A DNA stretch of 64,000 nt from Anseranas semipalmata (lineage: Eukaryota > Chordata > Aves > Anseriformes > Anseranatidae). The position numbers were made by a program, and so were the translations under genes. Under the pieces are notes generated by a model, which was given only the letters and a program-made list of their open reading frames with translations, was not told the DNA's origin and searched no databases. The stretch lies in contig VXAA01000846.1 in assembly GCA_013399115.1 (NCBI GenBank), forward strand, positions 448,447 through 512,446, in the 5' to 3' direction. Below are positions 33,001 to 42,000 of this stretch, in pieces; position 1 is the first letter of the stretch; the number at the start of each line of letters is the position of its first letter.

Positions 33001-36000
33001 TCTGCATTTCTCAAACCCCAGGATGTCCATTCAGACTTTCTTGGCCAATTGCTTCATAATTATTTATATGGATTCATAATGGAGATTTGATAAAACCCAA
33101 AGCTATTCAGACATTTACTCATTTGTTTGCATTAGTCCTCAGCTCAGTTCCCTTTTTTGTTGCTCCAGCAGACTTGATGAAATAGTAAAGAATTAAAGAG
33201 TTCATATAGCAGTTGTACCCGAGGAAAAAAAGCTATGGCAGACTAAAACTAGAAAACCGATTGTTCTGACCAAAATGGAAAGCTTCATTCATAGCAAGAT
33301 CTGGCCTCAAATCAGCATCAGTGGCAGACTTAACTGTTTATACTATGCTTGCATTTATATGCCCTTAATATATGTTAACCTTAATGTAGTCCCCAGGATT
33401 ATTCATGTGTTTAGTGTTAACAACATACATAAATGTTCTGTTACACTAAGTTAGTTCAGCCATTGACCCATGCAATAAACATGGCATTTATTTATAACTC
33501 ATGTGCTTTCTTCTTTCAGCTAAATAATGCTGAGGAGTTACTTAAGCTAAAAAAAATAAATAAATTAGCAAAATCTTTTATTTTCAGTAAAAACAAATGC
33601 CCTAAGCACTAATGCAGTAGTCTTGGATAACAAAACAGGGTCCCCAGAAGCTAAATACAAATTATAATTAACTTTAATTAGGTTAATATTTAATCAGTTT
33701 TGGAAAAGTTAACTCTAAAACGTAATAATTACAGTGACTGAATTATTTTAGAACACTAGACATTTCAAAGTCTTTAGGTATCCTGATCTTATGCATTTTA
33801 TCATCTTAACTTTTAAAAGATACATAGTCTTACCTCCACAATAGCATTCAAGGCAGTGTCAGCACCAATGCTAAAGTCTGTGCCTGGCACATTGTTGCTA
33901 ATAGTAGCAGGCAACACACAGATAGGTACGCAAAACTCCTCAAAGCGGGAACGTGCCTCATGTAGCTGTAGACAACTTTCATAGGCCTGAAGCAGTGGTA
34001 CAAGTATGAGTGATACATTCCTTGTCTTTGGATTGCTTTGCTAATGACTCCTTGCATGTGATGGTAAATTTGGCTGTCCACTGGCCCAAATAAATACAAT
34101 TGGTGAGATTATTGGGGGGTGCATCCTGTACATACCACAACAGTGCACTGGGGTTGCATTGGCACAATGCTCTTTGAAGAAATGCAGAAGATTAGTGCAG
34201 GTTAATACAGAGTGAATATGAAGTGTGCACAGCATTAGAGGTCTGAAGCAGTTTAGCAGAAAAAGACAGCATAAAGGTAGATTGGAAATCATTCTACAAA
34301 AAGCCACTTAAAGAACAAAGTTTCACACATGTTAAGAAGTTCAGAAAGTTAATTAGGAAAACACCTGCAACTTGAAGGAAACACTTAAAGAAAGCTGTTT
34401 TTTAACACTATGTTATCCTATAAAGTCAAGACACATCTATTTCCACCAAGAAAAAAGAAAAAAAAATTGCCTGTGCCTTCCAAGATTCTATCAACATCAC
34501 ACATCTGCCTCTATTCACACAGATTGGACAGAGGTCCAGAAAAATCCAAGAACATGTGCACATGGATGAGTTAAAGTTTGCAAGTATATTTCAAAGATTC
34601 TTTGAGAAGTAGCTGTAGGTTCTTGGGAGGATTCCAAACACTACAAAATAAATCAGCATGTGAAAAGGATTAGGTGTTCCTAATAGATGTCAAAATAATA
34701 CTTGTAGTTCAAGGTGTTTTAAGTCAGTAAACATTTTTTTTTTTAGTTACATTATTCCAATTCTACCTAATCCAATCTCATTCAGCATCTCTCATGATGT
34801 GTGGCAATTTTTCAAACTGCCTATGTAATGACTCTCCACAAGAAAGCCTAATTACATAGCATGTTCCTGTTTTGTTAATCTCTTTCTCCCAGGAAAGAAT
34901 GATGTTCACAGAAGTCTCATCTTTTTTCAATTTCTCAAATCAGTTCAGAGAAGCAAACTATGGCAGATCAAATCATTAGATAGATATCTCCACGAATATC
35001 TACACAGCTACTAATTTAAGCAATAACATGGGAGAAAGCGATGGGAAAAAAGTCACCTGTGAGAGTTCTGCTTATAGGTTCTTTTCCCCAGATGAAGCAG
35101 ATCCCATTCAGTGAGATGACCGGTCATACGATGATAGGTGAATGAAGCGCAAATTAAGTTTCTGAAGTCTATGTTGACTTTGCATATATTGTGGAAGTGC
35201 AACCTTCAACTAAGCCCAGTGCTAGGATGCATTTCCAATTTAACGTCTGAAACGGTCTAAAAAACTGCTATTTCAGATCTATAGCTCTGAGAAGCAGTAC
35301 AGCCAGAAGAGAGACAAATGGATTATTTATTTATTCAAACCATTCTATGATTATTATTTTTTTGAGTGGATTAAACTTCACTGAAAAAATTTCAGTAAGC
35401 AGTAATTACCTAGCCCAACTCATCTCAGTCAGTTGGAATTTTTGTTTCTAAGGAAACAAAATGATGGCAAAACCATAAGGCTTCCTAGTGATCTGCAAAG
35501 AAACATTGATGACTTTCTCTGAAAAGTTTTACAATGAGACTTTTGGGAAACCATGCTGAAGGGAAATTTAGAGCAGTAACTAACACAATTGGTTAGTTAT
35601 GATATGTTAAGATATGTTTTACTTGCATTAAATATTGCCATTTCATTTGATGCAAGTGATTTTAGCAAACATATCCAAAGATTATACCTCCACCAAGCAT
35701 AAGCATTAGATGATTATATGCAGCATCTTAGCATCACTGCAGAAAATATGAAAACACCTTCAATAAAGAGTAGCTTAACAATTATAGAAGGTAAATAAGT
35801 GATTGGTGGTTTTAATATTTGCTTTACAATTTTTTTTTTTTTAAATGAGGACAACAATAAGATCACAGAGGGATACTGTACCACATTAATGATATCGTTA
35901 ATCATTTCACATCCTTTATTATATTCTTATTATTTAGAAGGGTATTGGCAGAATCAAAGATGTTTTATAAAAATACATGCAGTGAAGCACAGACTGTGGT

Positions 36001-39000: not shown

Positions 39001-42000
39001 AGAGTCATACTGTACTAAGTCTTTCCTTTGTTTAAAACAAACTATAGACACTCTGCAACTGTATCTGTGGTGCATATGCATCCACAGATTACACTGAAAA
39101 GAAAAAGAAAATTGAAGGAAGCATAATGTTCCCATTGCTATTGCATGGACAAAATTATGTCAACACATATAGAAAATGAATTGCTTTTCTTAGTAAGTGT
39201 ATGATAGTTTAAGGCTTCCTAAGTGATTCAGGTGCACTGTAAGCATGCATGCTTGACAATGTCATTTGTGTGTCATTTGACAATTCTCACTCTATCCAAC
39301 TGAGTTTAGTTTTAATTGATCCATTCTTAATTTACATTGTTACTTTTTTTTTTTCAAATACATCTTAATATGTGTCAGCTCTTAAATCTGTTTTTTATTA
39401 GTAGAGTACACTATTCTTATTATTACAGAAGTGGTTACGTAAATAAGGATCCATTTCTGAACAGAACAACATTCACTTGGGATTTGTCATAGCTGGGTGT
39501 ACTGACATTTCACATACAACAGGGATTTTTTTCCTCTACAGTGCATCAAGTGATCATCAAGTCCTAGCTTTAGGTTTCTTTCTTCCCTGTACAATAAATA
39601 TATGCCATCCTATTTTGTAGGTTACAAATTCAAAGGTAATTGTAGTTTCAGAACAACCGTTGAGATGACAAAACTTCTCTCTTTTAATTGGGTATCATGA
39701 ATGTGGCTATATCAAGTAACTGATTTTCCAGACTAACTCATTTTCCAGATTAGATTTCCAAAGTTCTGGTCTATAAAAATATCCAGTTCTAGCCAATTCA
39801 GTCAGTTTTAACCAGAACTGCTTTATTAGTAAGCGCACACACCAGAATAGACTTACATCAGTTATAGTGTTCAGAGCAGTATCTGCACCAATGCTGAAAT
39901 CTGAACCCGGTACATTGTTGGATACTGTTGCAGGAACCATAACCATTGGAACACAGAATTCGTCATATTTCTCTCGGGCAGCTGACAATTCCAAAAGTCC
40001 GAGGTACGCCTGTTGGGCACAGGCATTGGATGAAAAATTAGGACAAATAAAATAAGGGCAAGGTTGGAGTGATAAAATGGAATGGGCCACAGGGGGAGCC
40101 ATTTCTACCACGACACACTTCAGCAAGTCAAAACATTAAGGATCCACTAAAATCTGACAGATACACAAAAAAAAGGATTAAAAACATGTATACATTTGAA
40201 AATAAACGATAATTAGAACATTCATTCGTTTCAAGGCAATATGTAATTTAGACATAAGAAAGTTGCTTTGTACAACACAAATATACTGCAAGCAATTTCC
40301 CAATCTTCAGGTACTGTTACTCCTCGCTTGAGATCTTAATATTCCTGAACTAGGGCCAAGCCTAACAAGTTGGAAAAATAAAGGACGATTCATTTCTTAA
40401 CCATTTATCCATTTAGCATATGTTGTTTTGAAGTTATTAGTTATTACCTTGAATTACCTTTCCACAAAAAATCAGTGATTAGTAAAACTGATCCTAAACA
40501 CTATTCATGTTGTGTATAAAATACAACAAATCAAATGCACTTTACATGAAGATTGGGTGAAAATTAAGATGGTCTATTTCTTTTGTTAGGAATTCTATTC
40601 TATTCAGACATAAGTCAAAATTTCAGTGTACCTCAAATCCACCAATAACCATAAGGGCATTAATGTTGTTAGTGCGCATCTGGTCAGCGATCTTCTCCAA
40701 ATATTTGGCAGGAAGAGTACTGAAAATTAATAAACCAAAAGAAAAATAAAAACAATTTACAGACTCTGCAACAATAAGAACTAATTACTAAGCTATAACA
40801 GTAAACTCTCAGCAGGCAATACAATATTTTTCATTTTACATACTTATTCATACGAATATTTCTTCCTGACTGCCACTAAGGAATCACATCAACTATGAGG
40901 AAAATACAAGCTTGCAATACTTTTAAGTGTTAAGTACCCTAGGAAATTTTTCAGTTGAGGTCCCAACTCCCATTTCATTCTCTCTTCAGAGGTGGTACAA
41001 TACTACCAAGATACTCAAGTTGGAACACAGTGCTTTAAAGAAAATTTAAAGATTTAAAACATTCAGTGAAAGGAAAAGAACACTGAATTACACACACGTT
41101 ATGTAGCATACTAGAATTCATCAGAGCAATTGGGAAAATATTGATATTACCGTTTTGTACCAAGAATTGAACCTCCTTGACCAGTCCAGCCTCCAACATC
41201 TCCCCAGCTGATTTCCTTTATCTTTGAATTAAAGAAGGAGATTCTGTTATGTAATTATCCAATTACTTCTCTTGACATGCAACAAACACCAGGCACTACT
41301 TAATGTAAAGCTGTTGGACCAAGTTGTTGGGCAATTTGGCAACACAAAAAATGAAATTGGCTAAAGTAGAAAACAGTACCAAGAGGTTAACTTAAGTTCT
41401 CTTGAATTCTTATCAATCCCTACACATTCTATTTGTCCTTTCTTCCTCCAGATCATAATAAACTCTGCCTCCTTGTCTCATATCATGATCTTGTTTTCAT
41501 ATCCTCTCTTACTGAACATGAAACACAAAAGTCTAAAACTAGGTCCCAAAACTAACCTTGAAGCTCCAGCTAGACAGTAGAAATCACTAATCTTATATTC
41601 ATTTTCTCCTTAGGCTACCAACGGATGCATAACATTTCAAACAGAGAAACAGAAGAATGAAACTCACCTGGAAAAAAAACAAAAGCTTCCTCCCTTAAAA
41701 AGCATCACTGCAAAGTTTCTTATAGCAAAAGAACACATGCAATAACTTATCACAAAGAATCAGCAATTCTTCTGTTACTCTGTGGAAAACCTACTACATG
41801 CTAAACATTGACCAAAATTTGAAAGTGGGATTCATCTGAACTAATTTTGTACCTCTGTAGCTGTGAGAAGTAATACTCAAGGATAAATCAATCTATAGGC
41901 TTGAATCGTTGCAATTTGGGTTTTATGTGTCTTCAGGAAATAAAAGAACTTACAGAGTCACTTCCCATGATAGTATGCCTTCTAAGAACATGAGAAAGGT

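What the first reader, a model, noticed from the sequence alone, without database searches (positions are those of the whole stretch)
33834..40009. Duplicated exon 16 in PFKP: a probable mutually exclusive pair that swaps an allosteric-site segment
Exons 16A (39857-40009) and 16B (33834-33986) are both 153 nt, phase 0-0 and open, flanked by AG/GT. They encode homologous 51-residue segments (32/51 identical), and either joins exon 15 (..GGFE) to exon 17 (TCDR..) in frame. The segment includes residues equivalent to human PFKP 538-542, part of the fructose-2,6-bisphosphate site. Choosing one could tune activation of glycolysis by tissue. Double inclusion or skipping would also keep frame, both introns are ordinary GT-AG, and 5.87 kb separates the exons. 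So neither nonsense-mediated decay, steric hindrance nor U2/U12 incompatibility would enforce exclusivity; an active switch would be needed. I cannot tell whether this pair is already described.
Basis: partly seen in the sequence, partly recalled or inferred. Interest (0 to 1): 0.82.

Follow-up and report, generated by a model that had tools for sequence, protein, structure and literature searches.

The report
Ancient swappable exon pair in PFKP
A bird gene for a key sugar-burning enzyme carries two versions of one exon; the choice is already known in humans, and sequence comparison suggests it is older than the split of the three vertebrate copies of the gene.

Summary
Exons 16A and 16B are both 153 nt, phase 0-0 and open, with AG/GT borders, inside an intact bird PFKP gene. 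16B is not a fossil: annotated 16B-only bird isoforms match the window's predicted protein at up to 99.7% over 755 residues, and three 16B-only proteins sit on contigs of at most 3,073 bases, too short for the unspliced gene.

The pair is already in print for human PFKP as mutually exclusive exons with an allosteric-residue change V539I, which fits the 16A-to-16B difference.

What I did not find in print is its history. 16B groups with the constitutive exon of PFKL (support 97-99), 16A with that of PFKM (81-97); a PFKP-only duplication is disfavoured (AU p 0.006-0.039). PFKL in this genome has a single, B-type exon. So the pair probably predates the three-gene split and PFKP alone kept both. 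Only 51 sites and 2-3 PFKL sequences support this.

Strict exclusivity is unproven: many database models hold both exons, though a structure prediction suggests such a protein folds poorly.

The parts
39857..40009 (-). exon 16A of PFKP, 153 nt, A-type (PFKM-like) segment
   Evidence: 51 of 51 residues fit platelet-type PFK with two changes
33834..33986 (-). exon 16B of PFKP, 153 nt, B-type (PFKL-like) segment
33987..39856 (-). 5,870-nt intron between 16A and 16B; no direct or inverted repeat of 30 nt or more within 29341-40631
40632..40719 (-). exon 15, upstream constitutive exon, ends ..GGFE, weak-looking donor gtacac
29176..29340 (-). exon 17, downstream constitutive exon, begins TCDR
23906..62470 (-). 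PFKP coding region in the window, exon 2 (from its first whole codon) to the stop in exon 22; exon 1 not found
   Evidence: 99.7% to annotated bird isoform P0164 over 755 residues

Best explanation
This is the avian form of a known, conserved tandem duplicated exon pair in PFKP. The transcript normally takes either 16A or 16B between exons 15 and 17, giving two full-length enzymes that differ in one helix-strand unit leading into the fructose-bisphosphate effector loop. The duplication probably arose in a single PFK gene before the vertebrate genome duplications; PFKP kept both exons, PFKM kept the A type and PFKL the B type, so isoform B gives PFKP a PFKL-like segment. Shown here: the two exons, their conservation, annotated A-only and B-only products, 16B-only proteins on contigs too short for the unspliced gene, and the phylogenetic grouping. 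Inferred: regulated one-or-the-other choice, and a shift of effector response through repacking around residue 539 (C533, I539 and T546 are B-type states shared with PFKL).
For: Intact gene and exon borders. 82 of the 120 proteins listed are 16B-only, four of them with source lgn, three of these on contigs of 2,846-3,073 bases. Human pair in print. B+PFKL support 99, A+PFKM 81; A/B sister AU p 0.016 and 0.0097, 0.006-0.039 under five more models; with the bird's own PFKL 97, 97 and AU p 0.015. Bird PFKL has one B-type exon 16 between introns of 181 and 88 nt. Structure prediction: 16B-only protein mean pLDDT 79.3; both-exon protein 70.1, with residues 553-626 under 50.
Against: No RNA junction counts; exclusivity untested, and 145 of the 299 proteins classified carry both exons (a sample biased towards them by ranking). 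The tree rests on 51 sites, 2-3 PFKL sequences, and a hand-picked subset; the SH test for the looser A/B constraint is 0.048-0.072; the A group itself has support 39. The two exon-16 copies of Ciona group together (92) instead of splitting into A and B. The rest-of-protein tree gives PFKL+PFKM (96, one PFKL row), unlike the liver/platelet pairing of PMC1508162.
Confidence: 0.8

Rival explanations
1. 16B is a fossil duplicate, open by chance and no longer used.
For: No RNA evidence from this species was available; in mammals the exon has diverged faster than 16A.
Against: 50 or 51 of 51 residues identical in chicken and many other birds, 48 in alligator and turtle; annotated 16B-only isoforms and 16B-only proteins on contigs of at most 3,073 bases.
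Confidence: 0.03
2. The duplication happened inside PFKP alone, after PFKP split from PFKL and PFKM, and 16B resembles PFKL by retained ancestral residues or convergence.
For: Only 51 sites and few PFKL rows; invertebrate exons also carry I539 (4 of 4) and mostly T546 (3 of 4), so part of the likeness is ancestral. SH p is 0.050-0.072 for the looser constraint under five models.
Against: AU p 0.006-0.039 over six models and two forms of the constraint and 0.015 in the reduced set. C533 is in 22 of 22 B and 2 of 2 PFKL and in 0 of 37 others. 16A shares V539 and S546 with all 8 PFKM rows, against the invertebrate state.
Confidence: 0.12
3. 16B reached PFKP from PFKL by an old gene conversion or copied exon, so PFKP did not inherit both from a common ancestor.
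For: The exon tree joins B with PFKL (97-99) while the rest of PFKP is distinct from PFKL.
Against: B is monophyletic (95) and sister to PFKL, not nested within the few PFKL rows, so the event would have to be old. It does not explain why 16A shares states with PFKM.
Confidence: 0.12
4. The pair is not exclusive: 16B is a cassette often added to 16A, and the both-exon protein is a real product.
For: Double inclusion keeps the frame; all 120 proteins listed and 36 AB plus 1 ABB of the 120 hold both exons.
Against: By my reading of the lists none of the 120 both-exon entries names lgn or jgi as a source, against 4 of the 82 16B-only entries. The predicted both-exon structure loses order over residues 553-626. 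Gene predictors can include both exons without a transcript.
Confidence: 0.12

Closest known systems
Human PFKP mutually exclusive exons (Lam et al. 2021, PMC7954323; Martinez-Gomez et al. 2022, PMC9741552; passages and named sections read)
   Same: Same gene, same exon position and the same residue change V539I; proposed allosteric effect
   Different: Described there for human and by structure modelling; the passages I saw say nothing of PFKL, PFKM or birds. The human B exon sequence itself was not among the sequences I obtained
PKM1/PKM2 mutually exclusive exons of pyruvate kinase
   Same: A glycolytic enzyme whose exon choice changes response to fructose-1,6-bisphosphate; named side by side with PFKP
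   Different: Another gene and exon; its regulation and exclusivity are established, those of PFKP here are not
Division of tandem exons among paralogues: FYN with FGR, SRC, YES1 and FRK; CACNA1C/D with CACNA1F/S (PMC9741552 section 12)
   Same: One copy keeps both exons, other copies keep one each
   Different: PFK is not among the examples in that section; the fuller paper on this topic, PMC4494069, is not held
PFKL, constitutive exon 16 (window's own genome, C546:39649-39497)
   Same: B-type, same length and phase, 68.6% identical to 16B
   Different: Single exon, no second copy found in C546:20001-50000 by tblastn

Membership tests
Mutually exclusive (tandem duplicated) exons | Adjacent homologous exons of equal phase, either of which joins the flanking exons in frame | tested here: met
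   153 nt each, phase 0-0, 32 of 51 residues identical, 755-aa frame with either
Mutually exclusive (tandem duplicated) exons | Each exon occurs alone in products | tested here: met
   82 16B-only proteins and PFKP 16A-only proteins; these are annotated or contig-derived proteins, not RNA counts
Mutually exclusive (tandem duplicated) exons | The two exons are not joined together in mature RNA | tested here: inconclusive
   Many both-exon models in databases; predicted to fold poorly; no junction reads available
Mutually exclusive (tandem duplicated) exons | Choice is regulated by tissue or stage | not testable with these tools
   Needs RNA-seq by tissue
The human PFKP pair already in print | Same gene, same exon position and V539I | tested here: met
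   PFKP by sequence; PATV in 16A, PATI in 16B against the S17 legend. Numbering rests on the recalled human sequence
Exon pair divided among paralogues after gene duplication | Exon types group across paralogues and not within PFKP | tested here: met
   B+PFKL 97-99, A+PFKM 81-97, A/B sister AU p 0.006-0.039; SH test borderline
Exon pair divided among paralogues after gene duplication | The other paralogues have lost the partner exon in their DNA | tested here: inconclusive
   PFKL: single B-type exon between introns of 181 and 88 nt. PFKM: not found in this assembly, known here only as protein
Exon pair divided among paralogues after gene duplication | The pair is present in a lineage older than the gene split | tested here: inconclusive
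   Ciona savignyi P0233 has two tandem copies, but they group together with support 92

The most novel reading that the evidence does not exclude
A single pre-vertebrate PFK gene already switched between an A and a B form of exon 16. After the genome duplications PFKM fixed A, PFKL fixed B and PFKP kept the switch, so part of what separates liver-type from muscle-type PFK is a splice choice that became two genes, and PFKP can still make a liver-like effector segment by splicing.
Probability: 0.68. Interest if true: 0.5.

Novelty: already known. Interest (0 to 1): 0.38.

Why it matters
The pair itself is known in human, so the window adds a bird case. The added value is a testable account of how PFK isozymes came to differ: exchanging exon 16 among PFKP, PFKL and PFKM should move effector response in a predictable direction, and the PFK genes of cyclostomes, amphioxus and tunicates should show when the switch arose.

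Tried and rejected
Fossil exon: rejected for birds. PFKP-only duplication: disfavoured by AU tests. Tunicate evidence: Ciona savignyi P0233 has two tandem exon-16 copies, the first with V539 and S546, the second with L539 and T546, but they group together (92), so an independent duplication is possible; left as inconclusive. Filament idea: PFKL residues 510-519, Loop 1 of its filament interface (PMC12670391 passages), lie in exon 16, but these positions vary among B exons and the residue N702 that PFKL filaments need is a Thr in PFKP, so this was not made the main mechanism. Splice regulators: a scan of 10 recalled motifs in the two exons and 300 nt on either side found no RBFOX, PTB, hnRNPL or ESRP site; YGCY is in mild excess (7 in 16B against 1.5 expected, 6 against 2.9 upstream of each exon), as are YCAY pairs upstream and TAAT-TAAY pairs downstream of 16B, without correction for testing. 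No direct or inverted repeats of 30 nt or more over 29341-40631. Conserved RNA pairing could not be tested: no intron DNA of other species was at hand.
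Full report
Observation. I built the gene from exon 2 to exon 22 on the minus strand; its internal borders are AG/GT and the frame is open throughout. 16A alone or 16B alone gives 755 residues, both 806, neither 704. The window's isoform B matches the annotated bird isoform P0164 at 99.735% over all 755 residues without a gap. 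The window lies at C452:448447-512446 of a 1.10 Gb genome held as G000.

Is 16B used? Searching about 5.8 billion proteins with the 16B segment alone gave 2,421 hits, of which the best 120 were listed. They come from birds, turtles, an alligator, lizards, a snake, frogs, a salamander, sturgeons, bowfin, many teleosts and a marsupial. All 120 hold both exons (119 AB, 1 ABB); the score sums both units, so this list favours them. A second search with a shortened query, which keeps out proteins above about 796 residues, listed 120 of 2,039 hits: 82 16B-only, 36 AB, 1 ABB and 1 BB (19 of the 120 were repeats). The BB is a rumen-fluke protein, not a vertebrate. The 16B-only set includes a chicken entry named isoform 3 (P0201) and three proteins of 765-767 residues whose longest contigs are 2,846-3,073 bases (P0203-P0205, source lgn). 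A frame of that length on such a contig cannot come from this gene of more than 38 kb unspliced. What lgn stands for is not stated by the tool; I take it to be assembled sequencing reads.

Is it known? Lam et al. 2021 (PMC7954323; passages and section 11 read) describe PFKP as a gene whose mutually exclusive exons likely alter allostery, with FBP-binding residue 539 changing from valine to isoleucine. Martinez-Gomez et al. 2022 (PMC9741552; abstract, passages and section 12 read) name PKM and PFKP together. By the recalled human numbering, position 539 is the V of PATV in 16A, which is I in 16B, so I take it to be the same pair. The human B exon itself was not among the sequences I obtained; B exons of horse, tree shrew, leopard, squirrel, deer, opossum and others were. 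The main texts of PMC5740500, PMC4465641 and PMC7561204 do not name PFKP. A paper on the fate of such exons after gene duplication, PMC4494069, is not held, so I cannot say whether PFK is in it; supplements were not open to me. Paper searches.

Where does 16B come from? Liver-type PFK was its best solved-structure match (82.8 bits, against 77.1-77.6 for platelet type), while 16A matches platelet type at 102 bits and liver type at 62.9. I aligned 25 A, 22 B, 2 PFKL, 8 PFKM and 4 invertebrate segments of 51 residues, a hand-picked subset of the 299 proteins classified plus the window and three solved structures. The best tree puts B with PFKL (99) and A with PFKM (81). Forcing A and B together costs about 21 log units (AU p 0.016 and 0.0097; SH p 0.0485 and 0.029). 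Under five other models, with the same topologies, AU p is 0.006-0.039, but SH p for the looser constraint is 0.050-0.072. With the bird's own PFKL added and the set cut to 34, support is 97 and 97 and AU p 0.015. Clear markers: C533 is in 22 of 22 B and 2 of 2 PFKL and in none of the 37 others; V539 is in all 25 A and 8 PFKM, 1 of 22 B, 0 of 2 PFKL and 0 of 4 invertebrates.

PFKL in the same genome (C546) has exon 16 at 39649-39497, 153 nt, AG/GT, 68.6% identical to 16B and 59.6% to 16A (the latter over 47 residues). Its neighbouring introns are 181 and 88 nt, and tblastn with 16A and 16B found no second copy in C546:20001-50000, only weak hits, among them the homologous exon of the N-terminal half. 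PFKM was not found in this assembly (all 24 matches lie on C452 or C546), so its exon is known here only from proteins. The rest of the protein groups PFKL with PFKM (96, one PFKL row, PFKP itself only 55), while a 2006 study pairs liver with platelet (PMC1508162, passages). With either gene tree the exon tree needs the A/B pair in the common ancestor with separate losses, or an old conversion. Ciona savignyi shows two tandem copies, but they group with each other (92), so they do not date the pair. Callorhinchus and Latimeria appear only with 16A, a capped list, so whether they have 16B is open.

How it probably works. In that loop only V539I differs. B-type states shared with PFKL and well kept among B exons are C533 (22 of 22), I539 (21 of 22) and T546 (20 of 22), in the strand before the loop, in it and just after it; L535 (19 of 22) is particular to B. 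I therefore expect a change in packing around the effector site and a shift of effector response towards PFKL. That is inference. The first half of the exon covers residues 510-519 of PFKL, part of its filament interface (PMC12670391, passages), but those positions vary among B exons.

Exclusivity. Frame, distance and splice type do not prevent double inclusion. A structure prediction of a both-exon bird protein (P0004, 24-sequence alignment) leaves residues 553-626, that is 16B plus the start of exon 17, at pLDDT under 50, with mean 70.1; the 16B-only chicken protein (P0200, 21 sequences) gives 79.3. By my reading of the lists, none of the 120 both-exon entries names lgn or jgi as a source, and 4 of the 82 16B-only entries name lgn. 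I read this as both-exon products being rare or poorly folding, but RNA counts are needed. The exon 15 donor (gtacac) scores 3.5 by a recalled matrix, second lowest of the 21 donors scored, a place to look for control.

Verdict. A correct observation of a real, conserved and already described exon pair. The likely new point is its age and its division among the three PFK genes.

Noticed in passing
P0233 (Ciona savignyi, UniProt H2Z9H5): One tunicate PFK model holds two tandem exon-16 copies in the order V539/S546 then L539/T546; they group together in the tree, so independent duplication is possible.
   Followed up: partly
G000, whole genome: A fish PFKM query matched only PFKP (C452) and PFKL (C546); PFKM is missing from this bird assembly or lost.
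   Followed up: partly
mammalian 16B in P0116, P0128, P0129, P0133, P0225, P0228: 16B has diverged faster in mammals (31-35 of 51 residues as in the bird for those counted) than 16A (47-49 of 51), while fish 16B keeps about 39-41.
   Followed up: no
P0224 (Puntigrus tetrazona): A fish PFKP model joins an A-type exon to a PFKM-like exon 16; a chimeric model or a real extra exon.
   Followed up: no
P0143 (Buteo japonicus); window near 33987-34016: A hawk model reads LILVPLLQ straight into 16B, the same letters as the window frame upstream of 16B; perhaps an alternative first exon, perhaps a model error.
   Followed up: no
window 18032-19036: A 28-nt tandem repeat, 35.9 copies at 99% match, pyrimidine-rich on the + strand.
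   Followed up: no
window 7674-8018 and 19767-20027, + strand: Open stretches that look like exons of PITRM1, the neighbour of PFKP in human (by recall only).
   Followed up: no
window 4682-4966, - strand: An open stretch that resembles a CR1-type reverse transcriptase fragment (by recall only).
   Followed up: no
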